NCBI GenBank assembly: GCA_026982475.1
Contig: JALSHB010000185.1
Location: 1-46,444, forward strand
DNA from: Chromatiales bacterium
Lineage (GTDB): Bacteria > Pseudomonadota > Gammaproteobacteria > SZUA-152
Direction of reading: 5' to 3'
DNA length: 46,444 nt
Under the pieces are notes generated by a model. The model was not told the DNA's origin and did not search any database. It saw only the letters and a program-made list of their open reading frames with translations. A program made the translations under genes and the position numbers. The stretch's first letter is position 1. Each line of letters starts with the position of its first letter. Shown here one piece after another: positions 1 through 6,715 of the stretch.

Positions 1-3000
1 TTCGGTGGCGTCGGTGAGGGCCCGGGTGCTGCCGAGGCCGTCGTAGTGGTAGTAGTGTGTGGCGGCTCCTCGGTGCTGGCTGAGGAGGTCGTCGCCGTGG
101 GTGTAGGCGACGATGAGGGTGTTGGCGGCGTCGCGTTCTTCGAGGACCTGGGCGTAGGCGCGGTTGGGGTCGACGAGGTAGGCGGTGGTGGCGCCGTTGA
201 CGGTCTGGCTTTGGCGGATGCCGTCGGCGTCGTAGGTGTAGGTGATGGTGTCGCTGGCGGTGTGGACGCGGATGAGGCGGTTTTCGGCGTCGTAGGCGTA
301 GGTGGTGAGGCTGCCGTCGTCCTTGCCGAGGGTGTTGCCGTTGGCGTCGTAGCTGTAGGTGGTGCTGCCTTCGCTCTGCAGGCGGTCGTTGGCGTCGTAG
401 CTGTAGTTGACGGTGAGCAGGCTGTCGATGGTCTTGCTGAGGCGGTTGCCGACCCGGTCGTAGACGTAGTCGATCTGGCTGTTGCCGTGCAGGGGGTCGG
501 TGACGGTTTCGCGGGTGAGGCGGTAGAGGGCGTCGTAGGTGTAGTCGATGCGGCGGCCGTTTTCGTCGATGCGCAGGCGGTTGCCGGCGGCGCCGAGGGT
601 GTATTGGTAGCTGGTGATGAGGCTGCCGTCGCTTCTGCGGTTTTCGAGCCGGGTGAGGCGGTTGAGGGGGTCGTAGGTGTAGGTGGTGTTGGTGCCGTTG
701 GGGTGGCGGACGCTGGCGCGGTTGCCGTTGGCGTCGTAGCCGTAGGTGGTGGTGCCGCCGTCGCGGTCGGTGACGCTGGCGAGGCGGTTGAGGGCGTCAA
801 AGCCGTAGGTGGTGGCGCCGGCGGGGGTGGTGACGCGGGTGCGGTTGCCGGCGGCGTCGTAGGCGTAGGCGATGTAGCGGCCATCGGGGTAGTCGATGCG
901 GGTGAGGCGGTCTCGGTTGTCGTAGTGGTAGCGGGTGAGGCCGCGGCTGTCGGTGACGGTGTCGCGTTTGCCGGTGGCGGTGTAGGTGTAGCTGACGGTG
1001 CTGCCGTCGGGGTAGGTCTTGCGGATCAGGCGGTTGCGGCTGTCGTGGGCGTAGGTGGTGGTGTCGCCGTTGAAGTCGGTGTGGCTGAGCTTGTTGCCGT
1101 TGGCGTCCCAGGTGAAGGTTTCGCGCTGGCCCAGCGGGAGGGTGCGGCTGAGGACGTTGCCGGCGTTGTCGTAGGTCCAGCGTGTGGTGCGGCCTTCGGC
1201 GTCGGTCTGGGTGAGTTTGTTGCCGAGGGCGTCGTAGGTGTAGGTGGTCTGGCCGCCGAGGGCGTCGGTGACCTGGGTGAGGCGGCCGAGGGCGTCGTAG
1301 GCGTAGTGGGTGGTGACGCCGGCCTGATCGGTCTCGGCGGTCTTGCGGCCGAGGGCGTCGTAGGTGATGTTGATTTCGGTGCCGTCGGGGAAGACCGTTT
1401 TGATGCGGCGGTTGAGGGCGTCGAAGACGTATTGGGTGGTATTGCCGCGGGCGTCGGTGACGGCGGTCTGGTTGCCGTTGGCGTCATAGGTGTAGTCGGT
1501 CTGGTTGCCGAGGGGGTCGATGACGCGGGTGCGGCGGCCGGCGGCGTCGTATTGGTACTGGGTGGTGTTGCCGCGGGCGTCGGTGACGCTGATCAGGCGG
1601 CCGGCGGCGTCGTAGGCGTTGCTGAGCTGGCTGCCGTCGGCGTAGGTGGTCTGGATGAGGCGCTTGAGGGCGTCGTAGGCGTAGGTGGTGGTGTTGCCGG
1701 CCTGGTCGGTCTCGCTGACCTTGTTGCCTTCGGCGTCATAGCTGGCGCGGGTTTCGGTGCCGTCCGGGAAGCGGGTGCGGATGAGGTTGCCGCGCGCGTC
1801 GTAGTCGAATTCGGTGCGGTTGCCGCTCCTGTCGACCTGGGCGGAGACCTTGCCGAGGGCGTTGTATTCGGTGACGGCGGTGTGGCCTTCGCCGTCGGTC
1901 TCGGCGATGACGCGGTTGGCGGCGTCATAGGCCTTGCGGGTGGTGACGGTGACGGGGGTGCCGCCGTCGAGGCGGGTGCGGGTTTCTTCGAGGGGATTGC
2001 CGTTGGCGTCGTAGACGTAGCTGACGGTATTGCCGAGTGCGTCGGTTTCGGTCAGCTTGTTGCCGCTGGCGTCGTAGGTGAAGGTGGTGGCGGCGCCGCT
2101 CTCATCGACCATGCTGGTGATGTTGCCGCTGCCATCGAAGCCCATGCTGCGGCTGTTGCCGAGGGGGTCGGTGGTCTGGGTCAGGTTGCCGCGGCTGTCA
2201 TAGGTATTGGCGGTGACGTTGCCGTTCTTGTCGGTGGTCGTCAGCAGCTGGTTGCGGCTGTTGAAGCTGCGCGTGATGGTGTTGCCGAGGGGGTCGGTCT
2301 CGGTGAGCGGGTTGTCATTGACGTCGAAGGTCTTGGTGACGGTGTTGCCCAGCGGGTCGGTCTTCGACAGTTCGTTGCCGCGGCTGTCGTGGCTGTAGGT
2401 GGTGGTGTTGCCCTGGGCATCGGTCTGCGCCGTGACGTAGCCGTTGTCGTCATAGGCCACGATGGTGACGTTGCCGAGGCGGTCGCGGATCACTTCCTGG
2501 CGCCCCGCCACGTCGTGGGTCAGCTCGATGCGGTTGCCATCGGCGTCTTCGGTGGCGATGAGGCGGCCTTCATCGTTGTAGATGTTGCGCGCCGGGGTGA
2601 TGCCGCGGGGGTCGATGTATTCGGTGAGCGCATGATTGCGGTTGTAGCGGTGGCGGGTGACTTCACCCAGTTGGTTGGTGACGGACTCCAGGTCGCCATT
2701 GACGTTGTAGGCATAGTCGATGACATTGCCGTTGGGATCGGTGATGCGGGTGATGCGGCCCTGGCCGTCACGATCGAAGGTGACGCCCTTGCCCGAGGAG
2801 TGGGTGATGCCGCTGGACGAATAGGTCAGGGTATTGCCATTGGGGTCCGTGACGGTGCGGATACCGAAGTTCTGGTCCAGTTCGTAGACGTAGCCTTCGG
2901 CCGTGGTGAGGGTGTAGCGGCTTGGGTCATAGACGTCGAACAGGAAGGTTTCAAGCAATCTGCCGCCGTTGTACCAAAGCTGGCCAACACTTTGCGGCAC

Positions 3001-5538
3001 CAGGGTTGAGCTGGATCCCGCCTGGGCGGTAAACACGGGGGTGACATACTGCAAAGGAACCAGCAGCTGGCAACGAGGGCTGACCCCCATGTTGAATTTT
3101 TCCACCTTGCCACCCGGCAGGGTGACCGTCACCACATGGGCGCCAACCGGCTCGACACAGTAATTGGGGAAGAACCCGCCGCTGGCCGTCTGCGTCCAGT
3201 TGAGACCGAGCCTGATGTTTTCCTCTACCTTGACGTCCTGATAGTCGATGCTCCAGCCATAACCGAAGTCACTGCTGCCAAAGCGCTTGCGCGTGTCATA
3301 GGTGCGGTTGATGGTGATGGGAATGCCCGCTACGGGAATGGAAAGATCTTCCACGGTGAAGGAGAAATTGCCCACTTTCATGTCACCGCTGACCTGATAC
3401 TGGACAACCGTCGAACTCTGCAGGCCATTAACGTCGGTGACGATCAGGGCGACATCATAGATACCGTTTTCGAGCTGGGTGGGGTCGAAGACACCGAGCA
3501 CATCATCGATGACCGGCAAGGTGCCACGCGCAATCTCCGTGTATTGATTCTGGTCAGCGGGCGAAATCATCAGCTGGTACTGCGCGAGGTTCACGTCATT
3601 CGCCGTCCCGATGACATTCACTGGAGCCGTTATCTCGCTATCGGTCACCGGCGTCGAGATGATCGCCGTTGGCGCCGTGGTATCGGCGGGATCCCGCACG
3701 CTGAAATAGCTCTCCCGGTCAACCAGCTCCTCACTGTCGCTGGCCGTGGCGCGCAACTGATGCGAACCAATGGTGGTACCCGTCAGCGTGACCTGATTTG
3801 CTGCATCGAGCAGAACAGGGGCACCATCAACGAAGAGTTCAAGGCTCACCCCGCCGGCGCCACCGGTGCTGCTGACAGTAACCGTGGTCGTCCCACCGAC
3901 ATCAATGATTTGTGGTGATACGGAAATAAAGACATCAAGGGGAAGGCCTGAAGTGGCCGGGCCACTGGAGACCACCAAGTCCACGGCGCTGCCGGCGGCA
4001 ACGGAGGCGCCGGCGGCAGGATTCTGGCTGATCACATTGCCCGCCGGCACGGTGTCGCTGTTTTGGGTCGCGACGCCACCAACCGTCAGGCCGGCACCCG
4101 TGATGGCCGCTTCAGCGGCAGCTTGCGGCTGGCCAACGACACCCGGCACCAGCACCGGCGCAGGGCCGTCGGAGACCACCAGGTCCACAGCGCTTCCGGC
4201 GGCAACGGATATGCCCGCTGCCGGGTTCTGGCTGATGACCGTGCCGGCGGGCACAGTGTCGCTGTATTGATTGGTGACGCTACCAACTACCAATCCAGCG
4301 CCGGTGATGGCCGCTTCAGCCGCGGCCTGGGTCTGACCAACAACGCCCGGCACCAGCACCGGCGCGGGACCGTCGGAGACCACCAGGTCCACAGCGCTGC
4401 CGGCGGCAACGCTGGCGCCGGCCGCAGGACTCTGGCTGATCACATTGCCAGCAGGCACAGTGTCGCTGTTTTGGGTAGTAACGTTGCCAACAGTCAGGCT
4501 AGCGCCCGTGATGGCTGCTTCAGCCGCAGCCTGGGTCTGACCAACAACACCCGGCACCAAGACGGGTGCAGGACCATCGGAGACCACCAGATCCACAGCG
4601 CTGCCGACGGCAACGGATATGCCCGCTGCCGGGCTCTGGCTGATGACCGTGCCGGCGGGCACGGTGTCGCTGTATTGATTGGTGACGTTACCGACCGTCA
4701 GGCCGGCGCCGGTAATGGCCGCTTCAGCGGCAGCTTGCGGCTGGCCAACGACACCCGGCACCAGCACCGGCGCAGGGCCGTCGGAGACCACCAGGTCCAC
4801 GGCGCTGCCAGCGGCGACGGATACACCCGCAGCCGGGTTCTGGCTGATGACTGTGCCGGCGGGCACGGTGTCGCTGTATTGATTCGTGACGCTACCGACC
4901 GTCAGGCCGGCGCCAGTAATAGCCGCTTCAGCGGCAACTTGCGGTTGGCCAACAACATCCGGCACCGCAACAGGCGCCTCCGTGGCCGTAATGCTGACCG
5001 TGTCGGGCGTGCTATCTGCCTTACCATCATTGACAATCAGCTGGACAATGTAAGTGCCAGCCACATCGGCGACAAAGGACGGGCTGGCTGATTGGGCGTT
5101 TGCCAGCAGCGCTTCACTACCTGCCGGCCGGCTGAGCAGAGACCAGGAAAATGCCAGGGTGTCGCCGTCCGCATCGCTGGAGCCACTCCCGTCCAGACTT
5201 ACAAGATCACCCCTGAAAACACTCTGATCCAGGCCGGCATCGGCCACCGGCACTGTATTGGGGGTAACCGGAGCACAATTTGCCAGGGTGCATTGCGCAA
5301 CACATTGCCGCCCATCAGCGACCGTAATAAATCCGTCACCATCCGCATCCCGGGGATCCTCGGGGCTGCTGGCCGCCGTATTGCGAGCCGCAAAGATCTG
5401 GCCAATATCGATGCGATCAATATCGCCATCATCATCAACGTCGCAGATACGCGCCTGCGCCGACAGACTGCCAAAACTGCTTATCAGCAAGAGCAAAAAG
5501 GCAAAAACCCGGGGGGCTGTCAGATATTTTTTACTCAT
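1..5538 (-). CDS. Secreted dockerin-PKD-PASTA-RHS/YD-repeat protein (3' end outside window)
   Basis: One open frame of 1846 codons runs from ATG 5538 (AAGGAGAG ribosome site about 9 nt upstream) to the window edge; I checked the frame at several points and at position 1. Visible order: Sec signal peptide (about 1-29, ending LSAQA); two calcium-loop motifs, DVDDDGDIDRID and DADGDGFITVAD (about 32-75), as in dockerin type I, followed by clustered Cys; a PKD-like domain (about 95-187); five 68-residue PASTA-like repeats (about 189-527); Ig-like segments; an RHS-type start near M720 (GNFSFTVEDLSIPVAG); then about 900 residues of YD repeats (TYDA/GN). It stops at YYHYDGLGSTRALTDAT, the signature close to the end of RHS cores, so the variable C-terminal tip lies to the left. 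RHS proteins form shells around toxic or enzymatic tips. No PAAR or VgrG-like part is seen; the signal peptide suggests Sec export. Probably co-transcribed with the cohesin-like gene 137 bp upstream. Confidence 0.9.
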   Translation of the reverse strand, partial: MSKKYLTAPRVFAFLLLLISSFGSLSAQARICDVDDDGDIDRIDIGQIFAARNTAASSPEDPRDADGDGFITVADGRQCVAQCTLANCAPVTPNTVPVADAGLDQSVFRGDLVSLDGSGSSDADGDTLAFSWSLLSRPAGSEALLANAQSASPSFVADVAGTYIVQLIVNDGKADSTPDTVSITATEAPVAVPDVVGQPQVAAEAAITGAGLTVGSVTNQYSDTVPAGTVISQNPAAGVSVAAGSAVDLVVSDGPAPVLVPGVVGQPQAAAEAAITGAGLTVGNVTNQYSDTVPAGTVISQSPAAGISVAVGSAVDLVVSDGPAPVLVPGVVGQTQAAAEAAITGASLTVGNVTTQNSDTVPAGNVISQSPAAGASVAAGSAVDLVVSDGPAPVLVPGVVGQTQAAAEAAITGAGLVVGSVTNQYSDTVPAGTVISQNPAAGISVAAGSAVDLVVSDGPAPVLVPGVVGQPQAAAEAAITGAGLTVGGVATQNSDTVPAGNVISQNPAAGASVAAGSAVDLVVSSGPATSGLPLDVFISVSPQIIDVGGTTTVTVSSTGGAGGVSLELFVDGAPVLLDAANQVTLTGTTIGSHQLRATASDSEELVDRESYFSVRDPADTTAPTAIISTPVTDSEITAPVNVIGTANDVNLAQYQLMISPADQNQYTEIARGTLPVIDDVLGVFDPTQLENGIYDVALIVTDVNGLQSSTVVQYQVSGDMKVGNFSFTVEDLSIPVAGIPITINRTYDTRKRFGSSDFGYGWSIDYQDVKVEENIRLGLNWTQTASGGFFPNYCVEPVGAHVVTVTLPGGKVEKFNMGVSPRCQLLVPLQYVTPVFTAQAGSSSTLVPQSVGQLWYNGGRLLETFLFDVYDPSRYTLTTAEGYVYELDQNFGIRTVTDPNGNTLTYSSSGITHSSGKGVTFDRDGQGRITRITDPNGNVIDYAYNVNGDLESVTNQLGEVTRHRYNRNHALTEYIDPRGITPARNIYNDEGRLIATEDADGNRIELTHDVAGRQEVIRDRLGNVTIVAYDDNGYVTAQTDAQGNTTTYSHDSRGNELSKTDPLGNTVTKTFDVNDNPLTETDPLGNTITRSFNSRNQLLTTTDKNGNVTANTYDSRGNLTQTTDPLGNSRSMGFDGSGNITSMVDESGAATTFTYDASGNKLTETDALGNTVSYVYDANGNPLEETRTRLDGGTPVTVTTRKAYDAANRVIAETDGEGHTAVTEYNALGKVSAQVDRSGNRTEFDYDARGNLIRTRFPDGTETRASYDAEGNKVSETDQAGNTTTYAYDALKRLIQTTYADGSQLSNAYDAAGRLISVTDARGNTTQYQYDAAGRRTRVIDPLGNQTDYTYDANGNQTAVTDARGNTTQYVFDALNRRIKTVFPDGTEINITYDALGRKTAETDQAGVTTHYAYDALGRLTQVTDALGGQTTYTYDALGNKLTQTDAEGRTTRWTYDNAGNVLSRTLPLGQRETFTWDANGNKLSHTDFNGDTTTYAHDSRNRLIRKTYPDGSTVSYTYTATGKRDTVTDSRGLTRYHYDNRDRLTRIDYPDGRYIAYAYDAAGNRTRVTTPAGATTYGFDALNRLASVTDRDGGTTTYGYDANGNRASVRHPNGTNTTYTYDPLNRLTRLENRRSDGSLITSYQYTLGAAGNRLRIDENGRRIDYTYDALYRLTRETVTDPLHGNSQIDYVYDRVGNRLSKTIDSLLTVNYSYDANDRLQSEGSTTYSYDANGNTLGKDDGSLTTYAYDAENRLIRVHTASDTITYTYDADGIRQSQTVNGATTAYLVDPNRAYAQVLEERDAANTLIVAYTHGDDLLSQHRGAATHYYHYDGLGSTRALTDATE
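3955..4974 (-). repeat. Five 204-bp tandem repeats encoding PASTA-like domains
   Basis: The marker ggagaccacca recurs at 3967, 4171, 4375, 4579 and 4783, exactly 204 bp apart, inside the RHS gene. Each unit encodes 68 residues beginning VPGVVGQ and containing SDTVPAGTVISQNPAAG, which matches the PASTA pattern (VPDVVG...A...GL...S..VP.G.VI.Q.P..G). The units are very similar at DNA level, with the outermost ones more divergent, so copy number could change by recombination. PASTA domains are best known from Gram-positive Ser/Thr kinases and PBPs; here they more likely act as a stalk or adhesive spacer. Confidence 0.9.
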
Positions 5539-5675
5539 GACGACGGTCTCTCCTTATACCTCAACCTTACACCTCAGCATCTGTTGCTGACTCACAGAGT
5601 GGTTGTTTTTGCGGATTGTCTGCGCAACCGGAACAGGCAGCCCGGTCATTCGGCGTCCGACTATTCCTTCATGAT

Positions 5676-6326
5676 TTAAACCTGAATCCGTGGGTTCAGG
5701 TTAAATGAACTTTTACGGCGCATCAGCCCGGCAAGGCCTGCCGCCAGCAACAATATGCTGGCCGGCTCGGGCAACGCAACTGGCCCGGGAACGACGGTGA
5801 CATAACCACTTCCAGCGTTTACCGGCCCGACAGGCAAGCCAATTTCATCGGCCAGATAGCCACCGGCCATGCCCAGGATGTTTTCGCTGAAGCCCAGCGA
5901 ACTCATCCCGGCCGCCACCGTATCAAAGGTAAGAGAAAACAATAAAAAGTCGCTGACCCCATCCTGAAATGGACTCAGATCGAAAACAAATGCCAGCTCA
6001 GCAATATTTACCTGACCAGCGCTTGGTATCTGAACGTCTTGAAACGAACCCAGGGAGGCGCCCAAGCCAGAACCGAACGCCACGCTGTCCACTGACAACA
6101 CCGAGGAATCATATTCAACATTGAAGTCAAAGGCGCCAATTCTGCTCCCCGCCAGATCGCGCACATAGATATCGACCGTGGCCTGCTGGCCCAGCTCGAC
6201 GTTCTGGCCAGGCGGCTCAAAACTCAACATGACCGCGGAAGCCATGCCGGGACCAAGAACAAGGACAAGCCACGGGACCGAAGAAAGGAGCAAGCGCAAG
6301 GTTTTGGAACTCTGCTTTTTGGTCAC
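5676..6326 (-). CDS. Cohesin-like PEP-CTERM surface protein
   Basis: From GTG 6326 the protein has 216 residues. The N terminus (MTKKQSSKTLRLLL followed by a hydrophobic run ending GMASA) is a Sec signal peptide. The middle (VELGQQATVDIYVRDL, GAFDFNVEYDSSVLSVDSV, FLLFSLTFDT) has the beta-sandwich pattern of cohesin domains. The end (LPEPASILLLAAGLAGLMRRKSS) is a PEP-CTERM sorting signal, processed by exosortase in other bacteria; no exosortase gene is in the window. I chose GTG 6326 over ATG 6374 because the longer form puts 16 polar residues before the signal peptide and has no ribosome site, while GGGGTG precedes the GTG. The last eight residues (NLNPRIQV) are encoded by a dispersed palindrome. 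The next gene downstream carries a dockerin-like module, the usual partner of cohesins. Confidence 0.85.
   Translation of the reverse strand: MTKKQSSKTLRLLLSSVPWLVLVLGPGMASAVMLSFEPPGQNVELGQQATVDIYVRDLAGSRIGAFDFNVEYDSSVLSVDSVAFGSGLGASLGSFQDVQIPSAGQVNIAELAFVFDLSPFQDGVSDFLLFSLTFDTVAAGMSSLGFSENILGMAGGYLADEIGLPVGPVNAGSGYVTVVPGPVALPEPASILLLAAGLAGLMRRKSSFNLNPRIQV
5681..5700 (+). repeat. 20-nt hairpin repeat, copy 1
   Basis: CCTGAATCCGTGGGTTCAGG. It folds as an 8-bp stem (CCTGAATC/GGTTCAGG, one U-G pair) with a four-base loop, extended here by flanking TTTAAA-like arms. It overlaps the 3' end of the PEP-CTERM gene and may serve as its 3' hairpin. Five other copies are listed below. Confidence 0.8.
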
Positions 6327-6715
6327 TGTAAACACCCCGTTTTGATAGCTTTCCGCAGTCTGAAATCGACCCATGTAGAAACTACATCAAGTTGCGGTTA
6401 TGCACTTTTCATGCCTCGACGTGAATTCTGTTTTCACTCAACAGGTTGGCAGATATCGGGATAATATCTTTTCCCGTTATGTAAAAAATTCGACAGCCAC
6501 AGGCCACCACGGAACCCGTACGCCCAACCATAAAGTAGATGGATTTTTATACCATTGCGGCGTGATATCAACCAATAGCCACTAAAACAACCTTTTCATT
6601 TGAACTCCCCCTGGGTGTAAAAAATTTCGACGCCACCCGGCTTGCGGGCAGCGCCGGGGCCGCTTTCTGCTATCCTTGCGGCTCCGAACAAAAAGGCAAA
6701 GGCCCTGACTTTCCG
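6327..6715. other. Divergent intergenic region between the PEP-CTERM gene and ubiD
   Basis: About 390 bp that is clearly more AT-rich than the flanking genes. It holds a sigma-54-like element pointing left (6401-6415), a perfect 6-bp inverted repeat ATGTAG-aaa-CTACAT (6373-6387) near the predicted leftward transcript start, and GATAT/ATATC arms near 6452-6468. A small plus-strand ORF at 6400-6585 has no ribosome site or family resemblance. I see no convincing sigma-70 promoter for ubiD. Confidence 0.5.
6401..6415 (-). promoter_or_regulatory. Sigma-54 (-24/-12) promoter-like element for the PEP-CTERM/RHS pair
   Basis: Read on the minus strand the sequence is GGCATGAAAAGTGCA: GG, ten bases, GC, which is the exact spacing of RpoN promoters (consensus TGGCAC-N5-TTGCA), with about 4/6 and 4/5 matches to the two boxes. 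The start would fall near 6389, about 60 bp before the GTG. PEP-CTERM genes are commonly linked to PrsK/PrsR and sigma-54 control. No enhancer site was recognised. Confidence 0.4.

What the first reader, a model, noticed from the sequence alone, without database searches (positions are those of the whole stretch)
5285..6326. Adjacent cohesin-like PEP-CTERM protein and dockerin-bearing RHS protein
The sequence shows a cohesin-like domain on an exosortase-type anchored protein and, in the next gene on the same strand, a duplicated calcium-loop dockerin module at the N terminus of a giant RHS protein. Cohesin and dockerin bind each other in cellulosomes. The inference is a two-gene surface display system in which the RHS cage docks on a PEP-CTERM scaffold. 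Such a link between RHS cages and exosortase sorting would be new to me.
Basis: partly seen in the sequence, partly recalled or inferred. Interest (0 to 1): 0.88.

Follow-up and report, generated by a model that had tools for sequence, protein, structure and literature searches.

The report
Exosortase-anchored cohesin–dockerin surface display pair
Many Gram-negative environmental bacteria carry a two-gene kit in which a small protein destined for the cell envelope carries the socket (cohesin) and a large neighbouring surface protein, here a giant RHS protein, carries the matching plug (dockerin), which points to a calcium-dependent way of holding big proteins at the cell surface outside the cellulose-degrading systems where this plug and socket are known.

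Summary
On the minus strand, a cohesin protein with a PEP-CTERM tail (5676-6374) is followed 137 bp later by an RHS protein that begins, right after its signal peptide, with a two-loop dockerin (5266-5448). The cohesin passes Pfam's cut-off. The dockerin does not (13.7 against 22.9 bits), but its predicted structure matches solved dockerins, not calmodulin-like EF-hands. The pairing is no accident. A contig scan with the dockerin alone found 32 loci; 24 have a cohesin gene, nearly always PEP-CTERM-tailed, next door. In 369 genomes of the class, 13 have the dockerin, 16 the cohesin and 11 both, always as close neighbours (p = 9e-16). The partner proteins differ widely (PKD/cadherin-like giants, IgGFc-binding, VWA, FG-GAP and, twice, RHS/YD-shell), while the dockerin stays terminal and conserved. 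The operon carries the known PEP-CTERM regulatory motif with a sigma-54-like site at the published spacing, and the genome holds XrtA, PrsK, PrsR and PrsT. I conclude that this is a general exosortase-regulated cohesin-dockerin display system, of which RHS is one cargo. Binding itself was not tested: the model gave no coordinates or PAE. No paper in the library searched describes it. New variant of a known kind.

The parts
5676..6374 (-). Gene for a secreted single-cohesin protein with a PEP-CTERM tail (P0001, 232 aa)
   Evidence: PF00963 31.3 bits and PF07589 22.0 bits, both over cut-off; TIGR02595 18.8 bits, over cut-off 16
6234..6305 (-). Hydrophobic signal-peptide-like segment (KTLRLLLSSVPWLVLVLGPGMASA)
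   Evidence: read directly from the translation; cleavage site inferred
5793..6233 (-). Cohesin domain
   Evidence: profile A4, 176.5 bits (the window is a row of A4); the same-genus relative L017 (76% identical) folds as a cohesin, and the 50 best-listed Foldseek matches are cohesin or cohesin-dockerin entries
5706..5774 (-). PEP-CTERM sorting signal (LPEP motif, hydrophobic helix, basic end)
   Evidence: PF07589 and TIGR02595 over cut-off; coordinates
1..5538 (-). Gene for the dockerin-PKD-5xPASTA-RHS protein (P0002; 3' end beyond the contig end)
   Evidence: RHS_repeat 482.5 bits, PASTA 268.6 bits, K319L-like PKD 48.5 bits; YD_repeat 382.5 bits
5452..5538 (-). Signal-peptide-like segment of the RHS protein
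   Evidence: read directly from the translation; the dockerin begins right after it
5266..5448 (-). Dockerin module: two Asp-12 calcium loops and four cysteines
   Evidence: A2 profile 107.8 bits; pLDDT 95.7 and best PDB matches dockerins; PF00404 below cut-off at 13.7 bits
4987..5238 (-). PKD domain of the RHS protein
   Evidence: PF22352 residues 101-184
3964..4971 (-). Five tandem PASTA domains
   Evidence: PF03793, 5 stretches; end coordinate approximate
6616..6632 (-). Upstream copy of PEP-CTERM regulatory motif 1 (CGTCGAAATTTTTTACA)
   Evidence: motif described in PMC1569441
6480..6496 (-). Promoter-proximal copy of motif 1 (CTGTCGAATTTTTTACA)
6402..6416 (-). Sigma-54-like -24/-12 site AGGCATGAAAAGTGC, 63 nt after motif 1
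   Evidence: published mean spacer 62.8 nt

Best explanation
The two genes form one operon of the XrtA/PEP-CTERM regulon and make a matched docking pair. Steps: (1) PrsK/PrsR and sigma-54 switch on the operon. (2) Both proteins leave the cytoplasm by Sec signal peptides. (3) XrtA processes the PEP-CTERM tail of the small cohesin protein and delivers it to the outer envelope or exopolysaccharide matrix. (4) The dockerin at the tip of the RHS protein loads two calcium ions, is probably braced by disulfides C2-C49 and C53-C58 (numbered within the 61-residue module), and plugs into the cohesin, so that the giant protein, which carries no sorting tail of its own as far as seen, is held at the surface. 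The same plug and socket serve many other large surface proteins in other species. Shown here: the domains, the conserved pairing and adjacency, the exchange of cargo, the placement of the module at the end facing the cohesin gene, the regulatory motif, and the sorting system in the same genome. Inferred: transcription as an operon, binding, calcium dependence, disulfides, surface location, and how the cargo crosses the outer membrane.
For: Cohesin over Pfam cut-off and cohesin fold for a 76%-identical relative. Dockerin fold with Asp at loop position 12 in all 33 aligned sequences. Of 32 loci found with the dockerin alone, 24 have a cohesin gene within 2.5 kb on the same strand and one more lies 5.7 kb away. 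Class sample of 369 genomes: 11 both, 2 dockerin only, 5 cohesin only, p = 8.9e-16; own family left out, p = 1.7e-10. In the 24-genome family the same 13 genomes have strong hits to both. Cargo architectures are unrelated. The dockerin faces the cohesin gene in 24 of 28 de-redundified loci (two-sided p = 7e-5), and the cargo tails examined lack a hydrophobic anchor. Divergence of the two modules is correlated, r = 0.60, 0 of 5000 permutations (shared ancestry alone could give this). Motif 1 lies upstream of 12 of 31 pair operons against 0.13 expected, 8 of them in front of a dockerin cargo gene that has no PEP-CTERM tail; in the window it sits at the published spacing from a sigma-54-like site. 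XrtA, PrsK, PrsR and two PrsT genes are in the genome. An EpsH-type exosortase occurs in 10 of 11 pair genomes against 115 of 358 others.
Against: No binding datum, no coordinates and no PAE: the single-chain model (pTM 0.56) neither proves nor excludes docking. The dockerin is below Pfam's cut-off, and its Foldseek E-values are not significant (best 0.11), as is common for 60 residues, although the match probability is 0.99. One pair genome (G015) gave no exosortase hit. Several related dockerins have no cohesin found nearby (L028, L032, L035, L044, L046-L048). 19 of the 31 upstream regions lacked the motif in the strict form searched, and the motif pattern was derived partly from the window itself. 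Only a minority of genomes in the class carry the pair.
Confidence: 0.75

Rival explanations
1. The two genes are merely co-regulated members of the exosortase regulon. The cohesin binds something else (glycan or another protein), and the 'dockerin' is only a calcium-stabilised cap at the end of a large extracellular protein.
For: Non-cellulosomal cohesins and dockerins exist whose function is unknown (review PMC5244752, citing Peer 2009). The shared regulatory motif alone could explain co-location. Orphan dockerins exist.
Against: The dockerin is far better conserved than the cargo it sits on and moves between N- and C-terminus to face the cohesin gene. Dockerin and cohesin are present together almost one to one. 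Both have the fold of known binding partners.
Confidence: 0.15
2. A miniature cellulosome-like enzyme complex: the cohesin recruits secreted carbohydrate-active enzymes.
For: Cohesin-dockerin architecture; a CBM96 hit in L041 and a Big_6/Big_5-rich cargo group.
Against: One cohesin per scaffold, no cellulose-binding scaffold, and no glycoside hydrolase catalytic domain among the cargos scanned.
Confidence: 0.03
3. The RHS protein is a surface-held polymorphic toxin delivery device that uses cohesin docking to stay on the producer cell until contact with a competitor.
For: The RHS core ends in a variable ~150-residue tip on contig C139, whose end repeats the last residues of the window protein. 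L088 also ends with an Rhs core domain followed by a tip. The N-terminal dockerin would leave the C-terminal tip free.
Against: The tip matches no Pfam or NCBIfam family. No immunity gene was identified. Most cargos of the system are not RHS proteins. This is a special case of the best explanation, not an alternative to it.
Confidence: 0.3

Closest known systems
Cellulosomal cohesin-dockerin pairs (type I/II, Clostridium and Ruminococcus)
   Same: Same folds and calcium-loop architecture. Best structural matches: 6kgf CaCohA2 and 5lxv ScaC for the cohesin, 5lxv chain B for the dockerin.
   Different: Single cohesin on a PEP-CTERM protein, no scaffoldin, no cellulases; four-cysteine dockerin with non-identical loops; Gram-negative hosts.
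Non-cellulosomal cohesin-dockerin modules (e.g. Clostridium perfringens NagJ-NagH, PDB 2ozn; Archaeoglobus 2xdh; modules surveyed by Peer et al. 2009)
   Same: Cohesins and dockerins outside cellulosomes. 2ozn, 2jh2 and 2xdh appear among the structural matches.
   Different: Here the two modules are always on separate neighbouring genes, with exosortase sorting, a dedicated regulatory motif and swappable giant cargos.
XrtA/PEP-CTERM (exosortase) system, Haft 2006 (PMC1569441)
   Same: PEP-CTERM tail, XrtA, PrsK/PrsR/PrsT and motif 1 plus sigma-54 site all present.
   Different: Haft 2006 mentions neither cohesin nor dockerin. Here the system would hold proteins that have no sorting tail of their own.
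RHS/YD-repeat and teneurin-like proteins
   Same: RHS repeats, Rhs-associated core domain and variable C-terminal tip.
   Different: N-terminal dockerin, PKD and PASTA modules after a signal peptide, paired with a cohesin gene.

Membership tests
Cohesin (PF00963) | Sequence match over the curated cut-off | tested here: met
   31.3 bits against 24.1
Cohesin (PF00963) | Nine-stranded cohesin fold | tested here: met
   Model of the 76%-identical relative L017: listed Foldseek matches are cohesin or cohesin-dockerin entries, best E 2.8e-10
Dockerin type I (PF00404) | Sequence match over the curated cut-off | tested here: not met
   13.7 bits against 22.9. I therefore call it a divergent dockerin-fold subfamily, not a member of PF00404.
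Dockerin (fold class) | Two F-hand calcium loops with Asp at position 12 | tested here: met
   Asp at position 12 in both loops in 33 of 33 sequences
Dockerin (fold class) | Dockerin fold rather than EF-hand pair | tested here: met
   Top 11 Foldseek matches are dockerins, probability 0.80-0.99; calmodulin-like matches 0.06-0.18; E-values not significant at this length
Dockerin (fold class) | Binds a cohesin | not testable with these tools
   No coordinates or PAE for the joint model
XrtA/PEP-CTERM system | PEP-CTERM tail, exosortase, regulators, upstream motif | tested here: met
RHS proteins | RHS/YD repeats | tested here: met
   482.5 bits
RHS proteins | Rhs-associated core domain and C-terminal tip on the same gene | tested here: inconclusive
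   Found on contig C139, whose end repeats the last window residues; contigs not joined
Cellulosome | Multi-cohesin scaffoldin and dockerin-bearing glycosidases | tested here: not met
   Single cohesin; no glycosidase domain among the cargos scanned

The most novel reading that the evidence does not exclude
A regulon-controlled plug-and-socket system, widespread in exopolysaccharide-forming Gram-negative bacteria, in which exosortase anchors single cohesins and any giant surface protein that acquires the matching four-cysteine dockerin, RHS proteins among them, is displayed through it. This would give a function to Gram-negative non-cellulosomal cohesins and a way for exosortase to display proteins that lack its signal.
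Probability: 0.55. Interest if true: 0.85.

Novelty: new variant of a known kind. Interest (0 to 1): 0.75.

Why it matters
Cohesins and dockerins outside cellulosomes have been reported in all domains of life with no known function (PMC5244752), and a 2008 genome paper left cohesin- and dockerin-like modules of a marine gammaproteobacterium as a question for future work (PMC2386152). This pair gives a concrete, testable case: named gene pairs, one plug per socket in the window genome, a regulatory motif, and cultured strains (Marinobacter sp. CHS3-4, Methylocaldum sp. 14B, Pelomonas sp. Root1444). It would extend the exosortase system from its own substrates to docked cargo and explain how proteins of 500-2800 residues are held on Gram-negative cells or matrix. 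The matched modules could also serve as an aerobic Gram-negative display tool.

Tried and rejected
Pfam Dockerin_1 as the test of the plug: too weak, replaced by family alignment and fold. Sequence search against the PDB with the dockerin profile: dominated by calmodulin EF-hands, resolved by the fold search. A joint fold of cohesin and dockerin, using a relative in which the two genes are in frame with a single stop read through (L017), gave high confidence for both domains but no interface information. A first sigma-54 scan with the strict consensus found nothing upstream of the cohesin; the site was recognised only after the TTTACA motif of Haft 2006 was read. Plasmid search with a dockerin consensus: no match. 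A cellulosome reading was rejected for lack of enzymes. In the phylum-level sample (398 genomes) all matches shown were in the same class. Literature searches for cohesin, dockerin and PEP-CTERM together found no paper; exosortase with dockerin found one, on methanotrophic archaea. The library holds open-licence papers only; Peer 2009 was not held.

Full report
The observation. On the minus strand of the window lies a 232-residue protein with a signal-peptide-like start, a cohesin domain over Pfam's cut-off (31.3 bits against 24.1) and a PEP-CTERM tail over the cut-offs of Pfam and NCBIfam. After 137 bp, on the same strand, starts a protein of at least 1846 residues: signal-peptide-like segment, dockerin-like module, PKD domain, five PASTA domains and RHS repeats. 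It runs off the contig end.

Is the module a dockerin? Its two loops, DVDDDGDIDRID and DADGDGFITVAD, start 32 residues apart. Position 12 is Asp in both loops in all 33 sequences aligned, as expected for dockerins and unlike the Glu usual in EF-hands (the general rule is from my own knowledge). AlphaFold2 folds the window module alone with pLDDT 95.7. The eleven best matches in the PDB are all dockerins (probability 0.80-0.99), headed by 5lxv chain B; calmodulin-type structures follow at 0.06-0.18. E-values are not significant (best 0.11), as expected for 60 residues. The cohesin's best PDB sequence hit is the partner chain of the same complex, 5lxv chain A, at a weak E of 0.11. For the same-genus relative L017 (cohesin 76% identical) the fold search lists cohesin or cohesin-dockerin entries throughout, best E 2.8e-10. 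Four cysteines are conserved. Where two are lost they are lost in pairs: 29 sequences have all four, three lack C2 and C49, one lacks C53 and C58. This suggests disulfides C2-C49 and C53-C58.

Does the pair recur? A scan of 84,980 species genomes with the dockerin alone gave 32 loci, mostly Gammaproteobacteria, with two Nitrospirae and one Deltaproteobacteria record. Twenty-four have a cohesin gene within 2.5 kb on the same strand and one more lies 5.7 kb away; the cohesins nearly all end in a PEP-CTERM-like tail. In an even sample of 369 genomes of the class, 13 have the dockerin and 16 the cohesin; 11 have both, always close together: Fisher p = 8.9e-16, or 1.7e-10 with the window's own family left out. 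In the 24 genomes of the family, strong hits to both fall in the same 13 genomes. Within the window's genus only two of seven genomes have the pair, so it is patchy. One genome, G019, has four dockerins and two cohesins, which suggests use in trans. In L088 one cohesin gene is flanked by two dockerin genes, an IgGFc-binding protein upstream and a teneurin-like YD-shell RHS protein downstream.

What changes and what stays? The cargos share no architecture: RHS (window), teneurin-like YD-shell (L088), PKD/cadherin-like giants, HYDIN/Big_5/kelch proteins, IgGFc-binding proteins, VWA7-like, FG-GAP, thrombospondin type 3. The dockerin sits at one end of the protein in nearly every case, and at the end that faces the cohesin gene in 24 of 28 de-redundified loci (p = 7e-5). 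The cargo tails examined have no hydrophobic anchor, while the cohesin proteins do (several cargos are cut by contig ends). Module divergence is correlated across 32 pairs (r = 0.60, 0 of 5000 permutations reach it), which shared descent of the cassette could also produce.

Link to exosortase. The genome has an XrtA exosortase over its cut-off, PrsK, PrsR, two PrsT genes and the associated glycosyltransferases in one cluster. Haft et al. 2006 described a 17-nt motif ending in TTTACA, sometimes repeated, followed after 62.8 nt on average by a sigma-54 site, upstream of PEP-CTERM genes (PMC1569441). Upstream of the window cohesin there are two copies, and 63 nt after the second lies AGGCATGAAAAGTGC with GG and GC at the sigma-54 spacing. 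A pattern drawn from these copies occurs upstream of the first gene of 12 of 31 pair operons against 0.13 expected from the rest of the same loci. In eight of these the first gene is a dockerin cargo with no PEP-CTERM tail. RpoN dependence of a PEP-CTERM gene has been shown in Aquincola (PMC9850573). An EpsH-type exosortase is found in 10 of 11 genomes with the pair and in 115 of 358 others (p = 1.2e-4); G015 is the exception.

Mechanism. The simplest account is docking: XrtA places the cohesin at the envelope or in the matrix, and the dockerin holds the large partner there with calcium. Binding was not tested. The joint model of L017, made possible because its two genes are in frame with one stop between them, has both domains at high confidence and pTM 0.56, but no coordinates or PAE were returned. 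How the large cargos cross the outer membrane is unknown.

RHS in particular. The window RHS gene breaks at the contig end. Contig C139 ends with the same residues and carries an Rhs-associated core domain (70.4 bits) followed by about 150 residues without a family match. The two contigs were not joined. The tip contains a histidine-containing stretch that by eye recalls HNH-type nucleases; this is a lead, not a test. L017 and L018 share the dockerin-PKD-PASTA start but are cut before any RHS repeat.

Novelty. Cohesin-dockerin binding, non-cellulosomal modules and the PEP-CTERM regulon are each known. Their combination into a recurrent, regulated, cargo-swapping display pair was not found in the library searched, which holds open-licence papers only.

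Noticed in passing
window 1-60 and L100:5157-6005 (G000:C139 end, minus strand): The ends of contigs C185 and C139 encode the same RHS residues; C139 continues into an Rhs-associated core domain and a ~150-residue variable tip with no family match. The contigs were not joined.
   Followed up: partly
L100:2609-2983 (minus strand): A short orphan RHS fragment beyond the RHS tip on contig C139, as often seen at RHS loci.
   Followed up: no
window 3964-4971: Five very similar PASTA domains in a secreted Gram-negative protein; PASTA is best known from Gram-positive kinases.
   Followed up: no
window 5680-5706: A perfect short inverted repeat (AACCTGAA...TTCAGGTT) spans the 3' end of the cohesin gene without a clear T run; possibly an RNA element between the two genes.
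   Followed up: no
L046-L048 and family f139: Methylomonas and relatives have dockerins of this kind for which no cohesin was detected nearby; their cohesin may be too divergent for the profile. G498 of the same family does have both, adjacent.
   Followed up: partly
G015: A 99%-complete genome with the pair and PEP-CTERM-like tails but no EpsH-type exosortase hit at E 1e-5.
   Followed up: no
L044:1-8925: A deltaproteobacterial contig with three consecutive dockerin-ended proteins (one with an endonuclease/phosphatase domain) and no cohesin found.
   Followed up: no
L037:9854-10291 (same contig as L090): The dockerin cargo frame ends after 146 residues; probably a broken or frameshifted gene.
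   Followed up: no
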